Below are positions 2,601-32,402 of a DNA stretch of 34,392 nucleotides, one piece after another. A model generated the notes under the pieces. That model saw nothing but the letters and a program-made list of their open reading frames with translations. It was not told the DNA's origin and did not search any database. The stretch comes from Fimbriiglobus sp. GTDB taxonomy: Bacteria; Planctomycetota; Planctomycetia; Gemmatales; Gemmataceae. The position numbers and the translations under genes are program-made. The stretch spans positions 1 to 34,392 of the forward strand of contig JANXTU010000493.1 in assembly GCA_025352235.1 (NCBI GenBank), in the 5' to 3' direction. How positions within the stretch are numbered: the stretch's first letter is position 1; each line of letters opens with the position of its first letter.

Positions 2601-2765
2601 GCCGTGCCCCGTCTGCTCGGTTCCACCGCGCCCGCGAAATACCACGGATCGCGCTCGACACCGTTACATCGACCGAACGCTGGGGGAACCTTAACGGTTT
2701 TTTCTGTCGCAACGATTCCGCGGGGCTCGGACTCGGCCGCATTCCACAATCCTATAATCGACCCC

Positions 2766-4241
2766 ATGGAAACGGTCGAACTGCGAGATGCCGCGTCGGC
2801 GCGCGAATACCTGCTGCAAGGGCTTTGGTTCCAACGCGCCCTCAAACCCGTGGCGGCCACGGTGAAGCCGGCGCTCGAGTGGGCGTTGGAAGTGGCCTCG
2901 TCGGGTCAACCGCTGCCGCCCGTCGGTTTTTTGGCCGATCTCGGGGCCATCGCCTTCGGTACCGAGTCGGGCAAGCTTGCGAAAGACGCCCCCGCGATCC
3001 CCGGTTGGCCGGTCGGGGCGGCGCGGAATTACGAAGACTTCCTCCTCGGGAAAATCTACGCCGATTGGACCTTCGAACGCGCGGCCGAGGCGCTGCGCCG
3101 GTACGCGGGGCACGACCGGGCCAAGGGTTTGGCTTACGTCGTCCAACAATTTCGGGAGCGGGCGAATCTCGGCGGGGTCGAACTGTCGCCGGGGGTCATC
3201 CGGGGATTGCTCGCACGGTCCCCCGAAGAGAATTTGCGGGAGGGTTACGAGTCTCTCGAGCGCGACGGTCCATCCCCGCTATTGCTGCAGCAATACGACG
3301 ACCTCACCCGCGCCGCCCGCCGGCTCGGGGAGATCCTCGGCGGAGAAGATGTGATCGCGCTGGAGCAGCGCACGGCGCTCGCCGACATGGGGGCTTATGT
3401 CGCGCATCGGCAGATTCTGCAAATCGCGGCGAAGTTCGAAGCCCGCTTGCCCGCGCGGCCCGTGCGGCCGTGGGCCGGGCGCAAAGAGGTACCGACGCGC
3501 GTGATGGACGAGGATCAATACCCCGTCGGCGGATATTCGTCGATTTCGAACCGCGGGTCCATCGAGAGCTTGCTCCACTCGCAATTGGCGTACATGGAGA
3601 CCGATGAAGGCCCCGATCTGTTCGACGTGAAGTACGTCCGCGACGAACTCTTTTTCTACTCGCGCGACGAGAACCAATTTCTGCGTCGCCGGCGGGTCTT
3701 CGTCTTCGTGCTCGACCCGTCGCTCGCGGAGGCGCGCTTCAAAGACTCGACGCTACCCTGCCAACGGATCGTGCTGGTTCAAGCGCTGGTGCTGACACTG
3801 ATCCGGAAGTTGTCGGACTGGCTGAGTCAAGATGCCTTGCGGTTCGTCTTGCTCTTCCCGACGCCCGCGGAGACGTGGCCGTTGCTCGACGAAGCGAAGT
3901 TGTTGGAAGTCCTGTTGATCGAGCAACGGGCCCGCAGGTCGGTCGTGCTGGCCTACCCGGGCGGGCCGGCCGGCTCGATCCCGCCGACGACCTTGGACGG
4001 CGCAGCGGCGATCTCGGATTTCTGCATCCAGCTCGCGCGGACGAGTCAGGTTCACGTTCTCGAAATTGCTACGGCACCACTGCTGGCGGAGGTCGAAGGG
4101 CCGGTGTTGCACACGCTGGCGGTGAATTCCGACACGCCCAAACTCCGCGACGGCGACGGACGACCCCACGACTGGATCGCGGACGACGCCTTTGACGGCT
4201 GGGTCGAGGCGCTCCTGCGCATCCTGCAATTGTGGGTTTGA
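2766..4241 (+). CDS. Uncharacterised protein with C-terminal vWA-like region
   Basis: Start METVELRDAAS at 2766, 491 aa; contains GGYSSISNRGSIESLLHSQLAYM...DLFDVKYVRDELFFYSRDENQFLRRRRVFVFVLDPSL followed by alternating beta/alpha segments. Confidence 0.6.
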   Translation: METVELRDAASAREYLLQGLWFQRALKPVAATVKPALEWALEVASSGQPLPPVGFLADLGAIAFGTESGKLAKDAPAIPGWPVGAARNYEDFLLGKIYADWTFERAAEALRRYAGHDRAKGLAYVVQQFRERANLGGVELSPGVIRGLLARSPEENLREGYESLERDGPSPLLLQQYDDLTRAARRLGEILGGEDVIALEQRTALADMGAYVAHRQILQIAAKFEARLPARPVRPWAGRKEVPTRVMDEDQYPVGGYSSISNRGSIESLLHSQLAYMETDEGPDLFDVKYVRDELFFYSRDENQFLRRRRVFVFVLDPSLAEARFKDSTLPCQRIVLVQALVLTLIRKLSDWLSQDALRFVLLFPTPAETWPLLDEAKLLEVLLIEQRARRSVVLAYPGGPAGSIPPTTLDGAAAISDFCIQLARTSQVHVLEIATAPLLAEVEGPVLHTLAVNSDTPKLRDGDGRPHDWIADDAFDGWVEALLRILQLWV

Positions 4242-18340: not shown

Positions 18341-19273
18341 TCACGCTCCGAAAAAGGACTTCTTCAACAACCCCGCATCCGTACTGCCGAACGTCCGCGC
18401 CCGGCCAGTTCGCAGATTCACGAACGTGACTTCCGCGGGACTGAAGAGCAGCGGGTCGATCTTGTAAAAGTCTCCGTAGCGGGCGAACAAATCGGCGAAG
18501 AGTTCGCCGTGATCGTTCGACGCATTCGACGGCACCTTCGGGCCGATCTCGTCGATGATCGCATCGTCGCAATCCACCCACAGCGTCACGCGGCCGCCGT
18601 ACAAGATGGCGTCGTTCGTCCGGCCGATCGCGGCGAGCTCGTCCTTCGCCACGGGAGGCAGCGGAGCGACGCCGAACCCGCTGACGACGGCGTTCACGTC
18701 GAACTTCAATTCGTGCAGTTTGTGGAGCGCGGTTTCCACGGTGCGCGCCACGACTTGGATCGCCCCCGCGATGCTGCTGGCCGGGGCGACTAGCAGTGTC
18801 AACCGGTTGACCGCGGCGGGTAACCTCTCGCGGATCGCGGCGACCACACTTTCATCCGGCATCTTGCGGCTTTCGAGTACGCCGACGGCGCAATTCGAAT
18901 CGTCCGATATTTTCAGATGTTTGATGACCTCTTCGCGCCCGGCGAGGGCCCGCATCGGGCCGGATCCCATGGCGAAAAACTTGCCGGCTTGCACCTGCCA
19001 ACCGGCGTATTGCGAGCCGAGGCAGGCGAGCACCGGGGCGTCGGTCGTGACCGCGATGGTCGGCCCCATGTGGCCGTTGACGAGCGCGACCTCGGCGAGA
19101 TCGGCGAGGCAAATGCGTGCCATTTGCAACCCCGCTTGCAGGCCCCCGGTTGCGGCGACTCCGCAATCGATGACGCGCGCGCCGCCGACTTCGGACACCG
19201 TGACGCGGATCGCCTCGGCGAGTTCGACCATCTCGTCGGCGAGGGCTTCGGCCCGTTCGTTCAAGCGGATCAT
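18341..19273 (-). CDS. mch: Methenyltetrahydromethanopterin cyclohydrolase
   Basis: MIRLNERAEALADEMVELAEAIRV; RVIDCGVAATGGLQAGLQMARICLADLAEVAL; YAGWQVQAGKFFAMGSGPMRALAG; VSGFGVAPLPPVAKDELAAIGRTNDAILYGG. Confidence 0.95.
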   Translation of the reverse strand: MIRLNERAEALADEMVELAEAIRVTVSEVGGARVIDCGVAATGGLQAGLQMARICLADLAEVALVNGHMGPTIAVTTDAPVLACLGSQYAGWQVQAGKFFAMGSGPMRALAGREEVIKHLKISDDSNCAVGVLESRKMPDESVVAAIRERLPAAVNRLTLLVAPASSIAGAIQVVARTVETALHKLHELKFDVNAVVSGFGVAPLPPVAKDELAAIGRTNDAILYGGRVTLWVDCDDAIIDEIGPKVPSNASNDHGELFADLFARYGDFYKIDPLLFSPAEVTFVNLRTGRARTFGSTDAGLLKKSFFGA

Positions 19274-20367
19274 CGCGGCGCACTCACTCGGGCCAGTTCC
19301 AGTAATCGTTCGCGGCACTCCGGTTCAGTATCGGCGGCCGCGAACAAAGTGACCACGGGTTGCCCCGCCGAAATGACCGAACCGACCGCCGGGATGTCGG
19401 CGAAGTTCGACCCGCGCCACGGATGATCGGCGGGGACGACGAAGGTGCGAGGGGCGTACAGAATCGCCTTCCCATGGATTTTCCGGTCCCCCCTCTCCGC
19501 TTCGGAGAGGGGGTGAGGGCGTGAGGTCTCGAAGTGGGCGATGTGCTCCGCCAATAGCGACCGTCCCAACGCCCGCTCGTACAGTTCCACCGAAGCCGTG
19601 TAGCGTGGGTTGACTTCGAGGACCAAGACGCGGTCCCCGGAGAGGATGAAATCGACCCCGATCAGTCCGCGGAGACCGAACGGTCGCAACGCTTCGCCAA
19701 TCCGCGTCAGTTCCGCTGTCAACGCGTTGTCAGTGGGAAGCGGGCCGATGTTCCCGCAGTAGTGGAACGGCGGCGCGTGCAACCACCACTCGCCAATGAG
19801 TTGGGAGCAGACGCCGAGGAGTTCGGGGGAACCGCTAGCGGGGAAAAGAAAGAGTGCCGAATACGATGGGCCGAGGATGAATTCTTGGAAGTAGTATTCG
19901 GGCGTGGGAAGATCGAGTTCGCCGGCGAACCGAATGCCCAGACCTCCCGCGCCGCGGAGGGGTTTTCGCAACGAGCCACCGGGCTCGCCCCGGTGGGGTC
20001 CACCTGCGCCCGGTGGCTCGACGATCCGGGGCATTCGCACAACTTTTGACAATTCGAACGGATCGCGGACGCGCTTCAAAACCTCCGGCCCGACCCCGAA
20101 CAATTCCCGATCCCGCGAGATCGCTTCCACCACCTCCGGATCGTTTTCTAGCCCGCCGGTATACATCCACGGCCCCGGAGGAGCTTGTCCCGCGAGTGCG
20201 ACAAATCCTTGTGGATACTCGTCCATGGGGCACGGGATCACAGGCCCCACGGCCCGCGTATCGTTGTCGGCGAAGAGGTCGATGACGACCGGTTGCCAGC
20301 CGGCGCGGACGGCAGACGCCGCAGCCGCGCGGCCGCTGGCGCCGACGATCAGCAGGGTGCGGCTCAC
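19270..20367 (-). CDS. ATP-grasp domain protein of the H4MPT cluster, GTG start
   Basis: GTG at 20367 gives [78 protein letters not shown]; overlaps both neighbours. Confidence 0.85.
   Translation of the reverse strand: MSRTLLIVGASGRAAAASAVRAGWQPVVIDLFADNDTRAVGPVIPCPMDEYPQGFVALAGQAPPGPWMYTGGLENDPEVVEAISRDRELFGVGPEVLKRVRDPFELSKVVRMPRIVEPPGAGGPHRGEPGGSLRKPLRGAGGLGIRFAGELDLPTPEYYFQEFILGPSYSALFLFPASGSPELLGVCSQLIGEWWLHAPPFHYCGNIGPLPTDNALTAELTRIGEALRPFGLRGLIGVDFILSGDRVLVLEVNPRYTASVELYERALGRSLLAEHIAHFETSRPHPLSEAERGDRKIHGKAILYAPRTFVVPADHPWRGSNFADIPAVGSVISAGQPVVTLFAAADTEPECRERLLELARVSAPR
19489..19513. repeat. Palindromic repeat inside CDS (PHPLSEAERG type)
   Basis: ccccctctccg-ctt-cggagaggggg, 11-bp perfect stem; encodes RPHPLSEAERGD in frame. 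Confidence 0.8.
19972..20020. repeat. Palindromic repeat inside CDS (EPPGAGGPHRGEPGGS type)
   Basis: cgagccaccgggc ... gcccggtggctcg, 13-bp perfect arms. Confidence 0.8.
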
Positions 20368-24000: not shown

Positions 24001-25365
24001 TCACTCGTCTAAGCCGGACCCGAAGCCGTCGTCTTCCACCGGCGGTTTCGGCGCGGGCTTCGGCTTCTCGATGACCTTGATCGTTTCGATGACGCGCGGC
24101 GCCGGCTTTTCCACGATGGCCAGTCTCGGCTTCGCGGGGGCTTTCGCAACCGGCCTCTCGGCCTGGATCGCCTTCGGTTTCACCGGCTCGCGTTTGGCCG
24201 GTGGGGCTTTCGCGGGCGCCGCGTCCGCCGGGGCACTCCGCTTCGGCGAGTACGACGGGATCTCGTCGAGGTCGTCGTCCACGTCTTCGATCAGCGAGCG
24301 CCCGAGAGGCATCCGGTCATCGTCCGCCGGAACGCGTGCCGGCGGGGCTTTCGGTTGCAAAATCGGTTGTTGCGGTAAACGGCTCGGCTGATGCAAAATC
24401 GGCCGCGGTTCGACGGGCCGTTGCGGCTGAAGAATCGGCGGTGGCGGTGGCGAAGCCGGACGGGGTCCGCGATCGTTCCGCGTCGCGAGAGGGCGTTCGA
24501 GCGGCGGCGAGGGGAGCAACGGCTTCGGCGCCGGGAGCGCCAGCGGCACGGGCGGCGGCAATTGCTGCACCGCCGGGGGCGGGCCGTTGCGCCGGAGTTC
24601 GTCGCCGAAGCGGTTGACCACGTAGGTCCCGCTCGTCTTGTGCTTTTCGATTTCGATCAGCCCGTGCCGCTGGCCGTCTTCGAGCAGTTCACTGAAGGTG
24701 CGGTAGCCGTGGTACTCCTCGTTGAACGACGGCTTCTTCCGCTTCATCGTGTCCTTGACCATCGACGAGAAGATGACGTCCTTGTTCTCGCGGCGCAGGG
24801 CGACGAGCGAATCGACGAGCAGGTTGAAGACCTTGCGTTTGACTTCGGGCACCTGCACGCCGCCGTGGATTTGCAGCACGTCGGGGCGGTCGAGGTCTTC
24901 GTAGTAGATGAATTCGTCGCAGTTGTCGCGCAGCAGGTTCGACGTCGCTTCGACCAACCCGAGCCCGATGACGTGTTTGCCGAGTTCCTTCAATTTGGAA
25001 ACCAGCGGCGAGAAGTCGCTGTCGCCGGAGACGATCACGAAAGTGTCGATGTGGTCTTTCGAGTAGGCCAAGTCAATGGCGTCGACCACGAGTCGGATGT
25101 CGGCGGAGTTCTTGCCGGTCATCGAGCGCTTCGGAATTTCGATGAGTTCGATGGCCGCTTCGTGGAGAGACCCGGCGTAGGTGCCGAAGCGGCTCCAGTC
25201 GGCGTAGGCCTTCTTGGCAACGATCTTGCCTTTCTCGACGAGGCGTTCCAAAACCTTTTCGATTTGGAAGCGATCCCTTCGGCCGCCGAAGCCGAGGGCG
25301 AGGTTCTCGAAATCCACGAACACGGCCAGCGTGCGTTCGCCGTCTCCGGCGCGGGAATGTTTCAT
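24001..25365 (-). CDS. NYN (LabA/DUF88) domain protein with OST-HTH/LOTUS-like domain and Pro-rich disordered tail
   Basis: Start MKHSRAGDGERTLAVFVDFENLALGF; IRLVVDAIDLAYSKDHIDTFVIVSGDSDFSPLVSKLKELGKHVIGLG; RKVFNLLVDSLVALRRENKDVIFSSMVKDTMKRKKPSFNEEYHGYRTFSELLEDGQRHGLIEI; then about 200 aa P/A/K-rich. Confidence 0.9.
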   Translation of the reverse strand: MKHSRAGDGERTLAVFVDFENLALGFGGRRDRFQIEKVLERLVEKGKIVAKKAYADWSRFGTYAGSLHEAAIELIEIPKRSMTGKNSADIRLVVDAIDLAYSKDHIDTFVIVSGDSDFSPLVSKLKELGKHVIGLGLVEATSNLLRDNCDEFIYYEDLDRPDVLQIHGGVQVPEVKRKVFNLLVDSLVALRRENKDVIFSSMVKDTMKRKKPSFNEEYHGYRTFSELLEDGQRHGLIEIEKHKTSGTYVVNRFGDELRRNGPPPAVQQLPPPVPLALPAPKPLLPSPPLERPLATRNDRGPRPASPPPPPILQPQRPVEPRPILHQPSRLPQQPILQPKAPPARVPADDDRMPLGRSLIEDVDDDLDEIPSYSPKRSAPADAAPAKAPPAKREPVKPKAIQAERPVAKAPAKPRLAIVEKPAPRVIETIKVIEKPKPAPKPPVEDDGFGSGLDE

Positions 25366-25580
25366 GTCGCAATCGGCTCCGCCAAGTCTTCGGGCGGCTC
25401 CCCGCCCATTCGGTCTCTGCAATACATCATGCGGGCGGACGCGAAAACGACAACCGCGCCGCGCCGGGTTGGTGTGTCAATCCCCGACGCCGACGAGCGT
25501 GAAGCTTTTGGTCGGGTTCAGCGAGGGGTGGTTGTGAAACTGCTTCGGCATGGGGTGATCCTTGAGGGGGACGACGCAAA

Positions 25581-27044: not shown

Positions 27045-28781
27045 ATGTCCACGAATCGCTGGTCCGTCCGCGTTTGGCCCGGGATCGCCATCATTGCGTT
27101 CGTCGCGTTCCTGATGATCGTCCCGTCGCTGGTCGCCCCTCGGACGATGCTGCACTTCGCCGCATTTTTCGGGGGTCCGCTGCTCGGCACGATCCTCGCC
27201 GTCGTCTGGTGGACGGCGTTTTCGCGGACGCGCGGCGGCATCCAATGGGCCGTGCTCACGCTGTTCGTGCTCCCGCTCTTCGGACTGTGCGCCTTCGAGA
27301 TCGCTGACAAGCAAATGCCGATAGGCCCGGTGATCTTCGGGGCGCCGTTCGTGTTGCTCGTTTGGGTCGCTTGGCTCGCGGTCAGTGCCCCCCTGCCCCG
27401 TCGCATGCGCCAATACGGCACGGTGGCGTCGCTCGCGGTGAGTTGGGTCGCCTTCGGTATGCTCCGCATGGACGGCACCGATGCCGATATGCTCCCCGAT
27501 TTCTCCTTCCGCTTCAGCCCGATGCCCGAAGACCGCGACGCCGACGACTTGAAGAACCGGCCGACGATCACCCCGGCGAAACCGTTGTCCGAGTCGGCGA
27601 AGGAGTCGCTCGACTGGGCCGAGTTCCGCGGGCCGAATCGCGATGGGATCGTCCGGGGGATCAGCATCGACCCCGATTGGGCCGCCCACCCGCCGAAGGA
27701 AATTTGGAAGCAGAAGATCGGCCCCGGTTGGGGCACGTTCGCCGTCGTCGGCGACCGACTCTTCACCCAAGAGCAGCGCGGTGGTAACGAAGCGGTCGTC
27801 TGCTACGACGCCGCAACGGGCGGGGAAATTTGGCGGCACTACGAGGCGGTGAAGTTCAGCGATGCCAACGCCGGCGCCGGCCCGCGCGCGACACCGACCA
27901 TCGTCGGCGGCAGGTTGTACGCGATGGGCGCCACCGGGCTTTTACTCTGTTTGAACGCCGAGAACGGCGCGTTGATTTGGAAGACGGACATCACCGTCGA
28001 CACCGGCGGGAAGCCGCCGCAGTGGGGCTATTCCTCGTCGCCGTTGGTCAGCGTGGGTGTGGTCGTCGTTTACGCGGGCGGACCGGCGAACCAAGGCACA
28101 GCGGGATTCGACGCCGGCACGGGTCGATTCCGTTGGTCGGCGGGACAAGCCAACCACGGTTACAGCTCGGCTCAGCTCGCAACTATCGGCGGCGTCGAAC
28201 AAGTGCTGATGCAAAGCGATCACGGCCTCGAAGCCTTCGATGCGAAAATGGGCGGAGTCCTCTGGAATTACAAATGGCACATCCCCGGCCTGAACCGCGT
28301 GACGCAACCGACCCCCGTTGCGCCGGGTGAGTTTCTCATTGGTACCGGCGTCGGCGGTGAGATGGGCACCCGGCGGATCAAAGTGAGCAAGACCAGCGAT
28401 TCTTGGCGGGTCGATGTCGTCTGGTCCACGGACAAATTGAAACCGTACTTCAACGACGGCATCTCCTCGGACGGCTACTTCTACGGTTTCGATGGCCCGA
28501 AATTGGTTTGCGTCGATCTCCGCGACGGCTCGATCAAATGGGGCTTGGGAACCAAATACGGGAACGGGCAAGTCCTGCTTTTGAACGATCAAAAACTGCT
28601 CGTCGTCCAAGCCGTCGACGGCAAGGTGTACCTGTTGAACGCGACGCCCGACGAACCGACCGAACTCGGCAAACTCAACGCGATCACCGGCAAAACGTGG
28701 AATCACGCGGTCGTCAACCGCGGGCGGTTGTATGTCCGCAACGGCACGTGGGCAGCGGGCTACGAGTTGAAGGGAAAGTGA
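27045..28781 (+). CDS. PQQ-binding-like beta-propeller repeat protein with N-terminal TM helices
   Basis: Start MSTNRWSVRVWPGIAIIAFVAFLMIVPS; WAEFRGPNRDGIV; VVCYDAATGGEIWRH; LLCLNAENGALIWKTDI; LVCVDLRDGSIKWGLG. Confidence 0.93.
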   Translation: MSTNRWSVRVWPGIAIIAFVAFLMIVPSLVAPRTMLHFAAFFGGPLLGTILAVVWWTAFSRTRGGIQWAVLTLFVLPLFGLCAFEIADKQMPIGPVIFGAPFVLLVWVAWLAVSAPLPRRMRQYGTVASLAVSWVAFGMLRMDGTDADMLPDFSFRFSPMPEDRDADDLKNRPTITPAKPLSESAKESLDWAEFRGPNRDGIVRGISIDPDWAAHPPKEIWKQKIGPGWGTFAVVGDRLFTQEQRGGNEAVVCYDAATGGEIWRHYEAVKFSDANAGAGPRATPTIVGGRLYAMGATGLLLCLNAENGALIWKTDITVDTGGKPPQWGYSSSPLVSVGVVVVYAGGPANQGTAGFDAGTGRFRWSAGQANHGYSSAQLATIGGVEQVLMQSDHGLEAFDAKMGGVLWNYKWHIPGLNRVTQPTPVAPGEFLIGTGVGGEMGTRRIKVSKTSDSWRVDVVWSTDKLKPYFNDGISSDGYFYGFDGPKLVCVDLRDGSIKWGLGTKYGNGQVLLLNDQKLLVVQAVDGKVYLLNATPDEPTELGKLNAITGKTWNHAVVNRGRLYVRNGTWAAGYELKGK

Positions 28782-28784
28782 CAT

Positions 28785-29261
28785 TCATGAGGGTTGCCCC
28801 ACGGATAGCCTGTGGAGTCTGATCGGACCGACGATGATGCGCCTCATGGCGAAGAACCAGTCGGTTGCGATCCAAGCGGTATCGTCCATCGGGATCACCC
28901 GCTTAGTTTTCCAATCGGCGCCTCGAAGAACTTCTTGCATGGCGACGGCCGCGTTGGTGTTGCTGGTGTGAATGATCACGGGGCAGACCGGGGACCGCGT
29001 CGCCAGGAACTCGGCCACATGGCGCCCTTCGCCCGCATCGACCGGACATCCTGCCGGGCCGATCTTCATGTCGAGGTCGTTGTCGAGAGATATCACCACT
29101 GCGCGTTCGAGATCCGTTTCTAAGTAAGCGATCATCTCGGCGGATTCGTCGAAGAATCGAGTTTCGAAGGTGTAAAAACGGTCGGCGATACAGGCGCGCA
29201 TCGCGGCTCGGCGAGCCGCGTTGTCTTCGAGGATCACAATCGTCTTTGCCATTGTCCTCAC
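28785..29261 (-). CDS. Cyclic-phosphate processing receiver (cREC)-like protein
   Basis: MAKTIVILEDNAARRAAMRACI; AVVISLDNDLDM; VAEFLATRSPVCPVIIHTSNTNAAVAMQEVLRGADWKTKRVIPMDD. Confidence 0.75.
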   Translation of the reverse strand: MRTMAKTIVILEDNAARRAAMRACIADRFYTFETRFFDESAEMIAYLETDLERAVVISLDNDLDMKIGPAGCPVDAGEGRHVAEFLATRSPVCPVIIHTSNTNAAVAMQEVLRGADWKTKRVIPMDDTAWIATDWFFAMRRIIVGPIRLHRLSVGQPS

Positions 29262-29626
29262 TCCAGTATCTGGGTCACCGAGCCGTCCGCCGGGAAAAAC
29301 CTAACCGCACCTCGATCCACCGATAAACCCTGTCGCCGCAACTCTTCGGCCACTTCTTTCAATCCCTGTTTGTCGTCGAACTGGAATGTTCCCGAGAGAT
29401 TCGTCACATCGACGATTCGACCACCACGAACGGTCATGTCCCCGGCGTACAGGGCCGGCGAACCGCCACCGAGAACTTTCGGGTGCAGATGCGGACCATC
29501 GGGTAGGACATGAATCGCTCCGACGACATCTCTCACGTAAACATATCCGCCGTCGGCGATCCTCGAATCCACCGGCCGGCTTCGCGAATCCACCGGAAAC
29601 GGTGTCGGATCGAGGGGGTATTTCAA
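29258..29626 (-). CDS. Small conserved-looking hypothetical protein overlapping the cREC gene
   Basis: 122 aa; GGYVYVRDVVGAIHVLPDGPHLHPKVLGGGSPALYAGDMTVRGGRIVDVTNLSGTFQFDDKQGLKEVAEELRRQGL; GTGA overlap with 28785-29261. Confidence 0.7.
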   Translation of the reverse strand: MKYPLDPTPFPVDSRSRPVDSRIADGGYVYVRDVVGAIHVLPDGPHLHPKVLGGGSPALYAGDMTVRGGRIVDVTNLSGTFQFDDKQGLKEVAEELRRQGLSVDRGAVRFFPADGSVTQILE

Positions 29627-29739
29627 AATCTTCCCAGTTCATGGCTGCAATGAATCACCTCGCACCCTCCACAAGCCAACAAGCATTTTATTCAATATCC
29701 GAACCTTCCGCGCACGATTCGCAACAGGCCACTCGTTTG

Positions 29740-29772
29740 GAACATCCCGCCAAGTTCGCTGGCGGGATGTTC
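29740..29772. repeat. Palindromic repeat in a divergent intergenic region
   Basis: gaacatcccgcca-agttcgc-tggcgggatgttc, 13-bp perfect stem. Confidence 0.8.
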
Positions 29773-29840
29773 TCCGCTTCGCACTTCGCCGGAATTTCCT
29801 AAGTTACCGTCGATTCACCCCGTCGTTTCCGAGGCGTTCC

Positions 29841-32402
29841 ATGGCCCGCACCGTACGCACTTACACCGTATTGCCTTCGATCCCGGATCGCCTGAAGGCG
29901 TTGCAGATCCTCGCGTACAACCTCTGGTGGTGTTGGAACGCCGACGCCGTGGCGCTGTTCAGCAAGATCGCGCCGAAGCAGTTCGAAGAACTCGACCACA
30001 GCCCCGTCCGCCTCGGCTACGCCATCGACCAAGCCCGGCTCGAAGAACTCGTCCACGATGCCGGGTTCCTCGCCCACCTCGACCGCGTCGAAGCGGCCAT
30101 GGGCCATTATTTGCAGGCGAAGACTTGGTTCCAGGAAACGTACCCGAACGAAACGGCACTGAAGATCGCGTACTTCTCGATGGAGTTCGGCATCCATGAG
30201 AGCGTCCCCGTTTACTCCGGCGGCCTCGGCGTCCTCGCCGGGGACCACCTCAAATCGGCCAGCGACCTCGGCCTACCCCTCGTCGGCGTCAGCATGATGT
30301 ACCGCGAGGGCTACTTCCGCCAGTACCTCAACGCCGACGGCTGGCAGCAAGAGCGTTACCCCGAGAACGACTTTTTCAGCCTGCCGTTGATCGCGGAAGT
30401 CGGCGCCGACGGCAACCCGATCCTCGTGAGCGTGAGCTTGCCGGGCCGCGAGGTGGCGCTGAAAATTTGGCGCATTCAAGTCGGCCGGGTGCCGCTGTAT
30501 TTGCTCGACGCCAACATCCCGGAGAACCGGCCCGAAGACCGCGGCATCACGTCGCAGCTCTACGGTGGCGACCAAAACATGCGGATGATGCAAGAGATCG
30601 TCCTCGGCATCGGCGGCATGCGGGCGCTGCGGGCGCTCGGCAAAGAGCCGACGGTCTGCCACATGAACGAGGGGCACGCCGCGTTCAGCAGCCTCGAGCG
30701 CGTCCGCCAGTTGATCGAAGACAAGAAACTTGATTTCGCTACGGCGAGCGAAGCGGTCAAGGCCGGGACGGTCTTCACGACGCACACGCCGGTGCCCGCC
30801 GGGAACGATGTCTTCCCGCCGGCGATGATGGACCAGTACTTCACCGAATATTACCGTCAACTCGGCCTCGACCGCCGGGCCTTCTTCACGCTCGGCCGAC
30901 AGAACCCGGACGACGAGGCCGAGCCGTTCGGCATGACGGTGCTCGCCATCAAGATGGCGAACTCGAGCAACGGCGTCAGCAAGCTCCACGGCACCGTGTC
31001 GCGCAAAATGTGGAACGCCATCTGGCCGACGATCGCCAGCGTCGAAGTGCCGATCACGTCGATCACCAACGGCGTGCACACGCAGAGCTGGCTCGCCCCG
31101 GAGATGGGCCAACTGCTCGAACGCTACCTGCACATCGAATGGGAAGCCAAGCCGACGGATCACGCGGTCTGGTCGAAGATCGACCCGGTACCCGATGGCG
31201 AACTCTGGCGGACGCACGAAAAATGCCGGACGCGCCTGATCGCCTTCGCGCGGTCCCGTTTGAAGATGCAACTCACCCGGCGCGGCGCCCCGCATTCGGA
31301 AATCGCCGCGGCCGATGAAGTCCTGGACCCCGAAGCCCTGACCATCGGCTTCGCCCGCCGCTTCGCCACGTACAAGCGCGGCGACCTCGTTTTCCGGGAC
31401 GCCGCGCGGCTCGCGGCCATCGTCAACAACACCCAGCGGCCGGTGCAATTCATCTTCGCCGGCAAGGCCCACCCGAAAGATCAGGGCGGCAAAGAATTGA
31501 TCGCGCGCGTCGTGCAGAACGCCCGCATCCCGGAGTTCCGCAAGCGCGTCGTCTTCATCGAAGACTACGACATGAACGTCGCCCGCCACATGGTCCACGG
31601 CGTCGACGTCTGGCTGAACAACCCGCGCCGCCCGCTCGAAGCGTCGGGCACCAGCGGCATGAAGATCGCCCCCAACGGCGGGTTGAACCTGTCGATCCTC
31701 GACGGCTGGTGGGTCGAAGGGTGCACCAACGACAACGGCTGGGCCATCGGCGGCGGCGAGGAGTACTCCGACCTCAAGTACCAAGACGAAGTCGAGAGCC
31801 GGCTGCTGTACGAACTGCTCGAGCGCGACATCGCTCCGACGTTCTACAACCGAGGCGCCGACGGCCTGCCGCGCGAGTGGATCCGCCGGATGAAGCGGGC
31901 GATTTCGACCCTCGTGCCCGAGTTCAACACCAACCGCATGGTGCAAGAATACCTCGAGCGCTGCTACCTCCCGGCCTTCACCCGCGAGGCCAAACTGACG
32001 GCCGATCAACTCGCCCCGGCTTTGGAACTGGCCAACTGGCGCAAGCGCGTCGGCGGCGCCTGGAACGACGTGCGCGTCGAAACCGTCGAAGCCCCGACGG
32101 CCCAGACGCTCTGGGTCGGCAAAGACTTTCCGGTCAAGGTGAAGGTGGCGCTCGGCGCGATCCGCCCCGAGGAAGTGGACGTCCAACTCTACTACGGCAT
32201 CGTCGATAACAAAGGCGAGATCGGCGACCCGAAGACGGCGTCGTTGCAAGCGTCGTCGCCGCCCGATTCCAACCGCGCGGTGTTGTTCACCGGGGCCGTG
32301 CCCTGCAAGTCCAGCGGGCAATTCGGCTTCAGCGTCCGCGTGCTGCCGAAACATCCGAACTTGCCGAATGCGTTGGAACCCGGTTTGGTGACCTGGGGCT
32401 AA
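29841..32402 (+). CDS. glgP: Alpha-glucan phosphorylase (glycogen phosphorylase family)
   Basis: NLWWCWNADAVALF; AYFSMEFGIHESVPVYSGGLGVLAGDHLKSASDLGLPLVGV; CHMNEGHAAF; RFATYKRGDL; GTSGMKIAPNGGLNLSILDGWWVEG. Confidence 0.95.
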   Translation: MARTVRTYTVLPSIPDRLKALQILAYNLWWCWNADAVALFSKIAPKQFEELDHSPVRLGYAIDQARLEELVHDAGFLAHLDRVEAAMGHYLQAKTWFQETYPNETALKIAYFSMEFGIHESVPVYSGGLGVLAGDHLKSASDLGLPLVGVSMMYREGYFRQYLNADGWQQERYPENDFFSLPLIAEVGADGNPILVSVSLPGREVALKIWRIQVGRVPLYLLDANIPENRPEDRGITSQLYGGDQNMRMMQEIVLGIGGMRALRALGKEPTVCHMNEGHAAFSSLERVRQLIEDKKLDFATASEAVKAGTVFTTHTPVPAGNDVFPPAMMDQYFTEYYRQLGLDRRAFFTLGRQNPDDEAEPFGMTVLAIKMANSSNGVSKLHGTVSRKMWNAIWPTIASVEVPITSITNGVHTQSWLAPEMGQLLERYLHIEWEAKPTDHAVWSKIDPVPDGELWRTHEKCRTRLIAFARSRLKMQLTRRGAPHSEIAAADEVLDPEALTIGFARRFATYKRGDLVFRDAARLAAIVNNTQRPVQFIFAGKAHPKDQGGKELIARVVQNARIPEFRKRVVFIEDYDMNVARHMVHGVDVWLNNPRRPLEASGTSGMKIAPNGGLNLSILDGWWVEGCTNDNGWAIGGGEEYSDLKYQDEVESRLLYELLERDIAPTFYNRGADGLPREWIRRMKRAISTLVPEFNTNRMVQEYLERCYLPAFTREAKLTADQLAPALELANWRKRVGGAWNDVRVETVEAPTAQTLWVGKDFPVKVKVALGAIRPEEVDVQLYYGIVDNKGEIGDPKTASLQASSPPDSNRAVLFTGAVPCKSSGQFGFSVRVLPKHPNLPNALEPGLVTWG

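What the first reader, a model, noticed from the sequence alone, without database searches (positions are those of the whole stretch)
28785..29626. Two-gene cREC plus small-protein module, candidate uncharacterised conflict or RNA-processing system
A cyclic-phosphate-processing receiver-like protein overlaps (GTGA) a 122-aa protein with a distinctive HLHPKVLGGGSPALYAGDMTVRGGRIVDVTNLSGTFQF core. That core resembles, from memory, the H..L.GG.PV..AG.M....G.I..I.N.SGHY motif of small planctomycete and effector-like proteins. cREC domains have been predicted to act on cyclic-phosphate RNA ends or nucleotides in conflict/repair contexts. The pair is flanked by housekeeping genes, so it reads as a self-contained cassette.
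Basis: inference. Interest (0 to 1): 0.68.

Follow-up and report, generated by a model that had tools for sequence, protein, structure and literature searches.

The report
Toxin-like small protein paired with cREC
In many planctomycete bacteria a small protein, related to the tips of large Rhs toxins, is encoded directly in front of a receiver-fold (cREC) protein; the best guess is a poison-and-antidote pair, but no activity of either protein has been shown.

Summary
Both genes are real and adjacent, but conservation favours an ATG start for cREC at 29252, so the genes lie 5 nt apart and the GTGA overlap is not needed. The 155-aa protein is a cREC member (PF20274, 37.5 bits, cut-off 27; receiver fold in an AF2 model). 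The 122-aa protein (B) has no Pfam, NCBIfam, PADLOC or PDB match.

The pairing recurs. In 398 genomes of the class, 22 of 26 strong B hits have cREC next on the same strand, always B then cREC, in varying surroundings. The other four lack cREC: two have a different 148-aa partner, one ends a longer protein followed by a third unrelated ORF, one is the C-terminal tip of an Rhs protein. Weaker relatives sit in Rhs or giant proteins. cREC can stand without B (in G020 B is missing between the same flanking genes); no strong stand-alone B lacked a small downstream gene.

Best reading (about 0.45): a polymorphic-toxin-type domain freed from its delivery protein, kept with a receiver-fold antidote. 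Toxicity, chemistry and binding are untested. Rivals: a non-toxic enzyme pair, or a regulator pair.

The parts
29258..29626 (-). Gene B: 122-aa stand-alone toxin-tip-like domain (TTG start, conserved MKxPxD start region, H.HP..LG ... AG ... N.SGTF core)
   Evidence: ORF; family alignments; no Pfam/NCBIfam/PADLOC hit; AF2 pLDDT 85, pTM 0.80; no PDB fold match, best E 1.3; pN/pS about 0.2-0.3
28785..29252 (-). Gene A: 155-aa cREC receiver-fold protein, preferred ATG start at 29252 (frame open to GTG at 29261)
   Evidence: PF20274 37.5 bits against cut-off 27; alignment of 24 partners with R14, L56, D57, H95, W127, W132 invariant; AF2 pLDDT 88 with (beta-alpha)5 order; PDB fold hits are receiver domains, E 2.6e-6
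29253..29257 (-). 5-nt gap between the B stop codon and the preferred cREC ATG; a GAGG-like ribosome site spans the stop
   Evidence: sequence, start conservation; inference
29627..29840 (-). Intergenic region that must hold the promoter of the pair; the divergent neighbour 29841-32402 is a glycogen-phosphorylase-type gene
   Evidence: inference

Best explanation
B and cREC form a two-gene poison-antidote cassette. B is a toxin domain of the kind found at the C-terminal tip of Rhs polymorphic toxins, here a stand-alone cytoplasmic protein made just ahead of its antidote. cREC, a receiver-fold protein, neutralises it. Shown: recurrent ordered pairing, Rhs-tip relationship of B, partner change, B absent while cREC is kept, receiver fold of cREC (model). 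Inferred: B is toxic; cREC is the antidote. Guessed: B is a metal-independent RNase-like enzyme with H46/H48, N76 and S78 in its active site, leaving cyclic-phosphate products that cREC opens; plain binding by cREC would serve as well.
For: 22 of 26 strong B hits have cREC directly downstream, same strand, fixed order. The remaining four have no cREC: two stand-alone B have an unrelated 148-aa partner family, one longer B protein is followed by a third unrelated ORF, one B is an Rhs tip, which resembles toxin domains changing immunity partners. B-type domains follow Rhs cores: Rhs_assc_core 72.7 bits in L023, 60.1 in L069, 38.1 in L071, 82.2 in L051. On a cREC tree the 'with B' label needs 6 changes against 16.3 shuffled, 0 of 500 as low, and G020, which lacks B, sits among paired cRECs; its junction is DUF1553-cREC-DUF1501 where relatives have B between. 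B and cREC distances correlate, rho 0.73 in 21 pairs, not corrected for species relatedness. The pair is patchy: 10 of 102 genomes of the order have B, none of the three other listed genomes of the same genus.
Against: B is well conserved for a toxin and lacks a secretion or delivery part in the window. The window's genome shows no Rhs core (90% complete), so delivery to other cells from there is unlikely. cREC genes over the cut-off occur in 99 of 298 genomes, mostly without B, so cREC has a life of its own. No toxicity, binding or catalysis data exist. H48 is not invariant (P in L030), which weakens the two-histidine idea. B could not be tied to any known fold.
Confidence: 0.45

Rival explanations
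1. Non-toxic metabolic or RNA/NAD pair: B is an enzyme (or binding subunit) whose product or substrate is a cyclic phosphate or ADP-ribose phosphate, and cREC processes it as a housekeeping or repair step; the Rhs versions are toxins borrowed from that enzyme.
For: cREC is common without B and its distant relatives sit beside ordinary genes; cREC is predicted to open cyclic phosphates and is linked to RNA ligases, sirtuins and Nudix enzymes in phages (PMC7824862, PMC9503650); B is well conserved.
Against: Patchy presence, change of partner and B lost while cREC stays fit a conflict module better; no RNA-repair or NAD gene was seen directly beside the pair in the window.
Confidence: 0.3
2. Regulatory pair: B binds cREC and controls it, or is controlled by it, as an orphan receiver module without a histidine kinase.
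For: Receiver fold with conserved E9/D10 and D57; fixed order and co-divergence; three cRECs carry an extra ~170-aa C-terminal domain.
Against: The cREC family is described as never linked to histidine kinases (PMC7824862); no kinase next to the window pair; a regulator role does not explain B at Rhs tips.
Confidence: 0.15
3. Orphan or reserve toxin-immunity cassette feeding tip exchange of Rhs genes, rather than a stand-alone system.
For: Stand-alone toxin cassettes are a known part of polymorphic toxin systems (PMC3482391); B also occurs as an Rhs tip.
Against: No Rhs core in the window's own genome; cREC was not found next to an Rhs-fused B.
Confidence: 0.1

Closest known systems
cREC (cyclic-phosphate processing receiver domain), PF20274
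   Same: Profile over the cut-off; receiver fold; conserved aspartate D57 and SLDxDL / HTxN motifs
   Different: Published contexts are RNA repair and NAD/ADPr systems of phages; here the partner is a toxin-tip-like domain; no catalysis shown in either case
Rhs polymorphic toxins with C-terminal tip domains and downstream immunity genes
   Same: B-type domains sit right after Rhs cores; small gene directly downstream; partner changes
   Different: In the window B stands alone, without Rhs core or secretion part; the antidote candidate is a receiver-fold protein; the 2012 catalogue of polymorphic toxins (PMC3482391) holds no 'receiver' in the text held
Type II toxin-antitoxin pairs
   Same: Two small neighbouring genes, same strand, patchy, antidote candidate retained when the other gene is lost
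   Different: Toxin candidate first, antidote second; no DNA-binding antitoxin; toxicity untested
Plant IQM-type proteins with an AG...SGHY motif (recalled, not tested)
   Same: From memory, similar H...AG...G...SGHY spacing
   Different: No sequence was compared here; a lead only

Membership tests
cREC (PF20274) | Profile score over the curated cut-off | tested here: met
   37.5 bits against 27; partners in L015, L018, L019, L020 37.5-43.4 bits
cREC (PF20274) | Receiver (Rossmann-like) fold | tested here: met
   AF2 pLDDT 88, alternating beta-alpha order; top PDB fold hits are receiver domains
cREC (PF20274) | Two conserved aspartates | tested here: met
   D57 invariant, D10 and D59 at 90% or more in 24 sequences
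cREC (PF20274) | Hydrolysis of cyclic phosphates or 1''-2'' cADPr-type products | not testable with these tools
   Predicted only, also in the source papers
Classical response regulator | Lysine at the end of strand 5 and a partner histidine kinase | tested here: not met
   No conserved lysine there; R118/P121 conserved instead; no kinase directly beside the pair; Response_reg score 17.9 under cut-off 30.2
Polymorphic toxin tip domain | Homologous domain at the C-terminus of Rhs or similar carriers | tested here: met
   L023, L069, L071, L051; HMM hits with E 1e-4 or better
Polymorphic toxin tip domain | Carried on a delivered protein in this genome | tested here: not met
   B stands alone; no Rhs core in own genome
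Toxin-antitoxin / immunity pair | Fixed two-gene linkage across genomes | tested here: met
   22 of 26 strong hits
Toxin-antitoxin / immunity pair | Toxicity of one product and rescue by the other | not testable with these tools
   Needs expression tests
Known anti-phage defence system | Match to a PADLOC model | tested here: not met
   No match for either protein

The most novel reading that the evidence does not exclude
A toxin-domain family with a fold not found among solved structures, whose antidote is a receiver-fold enzyme that repairs or removes the cyclic-phosphate (or ADP-ribose phosphate) product: an antidote that works by chemistry, and a first biological job for cREC in bacterial chromosomes.
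Probability: 0.15. Interest if true: 0.8.

Novelty: new variant of a known kind. Interest (0 to 1): 0.55.

Why it matters
cREC domains have only been predicted to process cyclic phosphates. A tight, recurrent partner with toxin-tip ancestry gives a small, two-protein system in which that prediction can be tested. B also defines an unnamed domain family shared by stand-alone genes and Rhs tips.

Tried and rejected
PDB sequence search for B alone and as a profile: only chance hits. PDB fold search for B: nothing. Viral contigs: no B relative; plasmids: none; phages for cREC: none by tblastn; the cREC profile could not be turned into a collection scan. PHROGs: nothing useful for B; cREC hits a phage family of unknown function, phrog_1479. 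Idea that the extra C-terminal domain of some cRECs is the alternative 148-aa partner: no support by hhalign or phmmer. Idea that the L057 downstream ORF belongs to the 148-aa family: no support. Reading the partner of the Rhs-fused B in L023: frames are broken there, left open. Sequence upstream of B in L057 is masked and was not pursued. Literature on SGHY effectors and planctomycete toxins gave no prior description of B.

Full report
What is there. Gene B is 29258-29626 (-), 122 aa, TTG start. Gene A, cREC, is 28785-29252 (-) if its start is taken at the conserved ATG, or to 29261 with the upstream GTG. Relatives begin MxxIVILEDN, and the coding strand reads GAGTGAGGACAATG across the B stop codon, so the ATG with a GAGG-like site is the better start; the GTGA overlap is not needed. 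The pair runs convergent to a PQQ/BamB-type gene ending at 28781 and divergent to a glycogen-phosphorylase-type gene starting at 29841. Both genes show purifying selection.

What the proteins are. cREC: PF20274 at 37.5 bits, over its cut-off of 27, and only a weak, sub-threshold match to Response_reg. Its AF2 model (pLDDT 88) matches receiver domains in the PDB (E 2.6e-6). R14, L56, D57, H95, W127 and W132 are invariant in 24 partners; the classical strand-5 lysine is absent. B: no match for the window protein in Pfam, NCBIfam, PADLOC or PHROGs, none in the PDB by sequence or fold. Its model is confident (pLDDT 85), made from the window plus five relatives. In predicted viral structures three unnamed proteins match (G8DGH9 E 1.1e-4, E5EQ39 2.2e-3, A0A0P0YMH7 1.7e-2); their identity was not read.

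Recurrence. Searches in the order, class and phylum and one scan of genome contigs gave about 30 relatives, nearly all in the window's class. In the 398 class genomes, 26 B hits exceed 100 bits; 22 have cREC next, downstream on the same strand, 11-70 nt between profile edges. Surroundings differ: DUF1553/DUF1501 genes in G025 and G087, other genes in the window and elsewhere. The four exceptions: G050 and G062 have instead two 148-aa proteins related to each other (82.8 bits); G232 (L057) has B at the end of a longer protein followed by an unrelated ORF; G001 (L023) has B after an Rhs core (72.7 bits). Weaker relatives end or sit in Rhs proteins (L051, L069, L071) and other large proteins (L066, L067). 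The B group has SGTF where most distant members have SGHY/SGHF.

Gain and loss. cREC over the cut-off is in 99 of 298 class genomes and mostly without B. On a tree of 48 cRECs the 'with B' state is clustered (6 changes, shuffled mean 16.3, 0 of 500). G020 lies inside a paired clade but lacks B: its cREC sits about 35 nt behind the DUF1553 gene and before the DUF1501 gene, where G025 and G087 have B between. None of the strong stand-alone B hits was without a small downstream gene; G344 lies at a contig end and is unreadable. B and cREC distances correlate (rho 0.73, 21 pairs); species relatedness was not removed.

How it most likely works. Inference: B is a toxin domain detached from Rhs carriers and kept in the cytoplasm with a receiver-fold antidote. 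The asymmetry of loss, the change of partner and the Rhs link support this; they do not prove toxicity. The chemistry is a guess: H46, H48, N76 and S78 would suit a metal-independent RNase-like site, whose cyclic-phosphate product would suit the predicted role of cREC (PMC7824862, PMC9503650). H48 is P in one relative, so the guess is weak. The window's genome has no Rhs core, so the pair there is unlikely to be a reserve for tip exchange.

Comparison. cREC membership is met on sequence and fold, untested on activity. A classical response regulator is excluded. Toxin-tip homology is met, delivery is not. PADLOC has no model for it. Papers found name cREC only as a prediction in viral NAD/RNA systems; none of those searched or read names this pair.

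Noticed in passing
window 2604-4241 (+): Protein with PF19996/PF19997, vWA component of 'FtsH ternary systems' (98 and 135.9 bits).
   Followed up: no
window 24001-25422 (-): 473-aa protein with an NYN domain (PF01936, 124.7 bits), a possible RNase.
   Followed up: no
L058 1748-2725 (-), L059 1849-2817 (+), L039 1891-2862 (+): cREC fused to a ~170-aa C-terminal domain of unknown kind, directly after B.
   Followed up: partly
L021 4488-4934 (-), L022 8877-9323 (+), L153: 148-aa family that follows B in place of cREC; a further broken copy in G050 contig 1107 shows no B beside it.
   Followed up: partly
L121 1230-1732 (-): Natural B-less site: cREC between the DUF1553 and DUF1501 genes without B.
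   Followed up: yes
window 18341-19318 (-): Methenyl-H4MPT cyclohydrolase (PF02289, 384 bits) next to ATP-grasp genes, a C1 pathway cluster.
   Followed up: no
window 28785-29626 (B model m812110e0e6f9): Predicted viral proteins G8DGH9 and E5EQ39 match the B fold with probability 1.00; names not available here.
   Followed up: no
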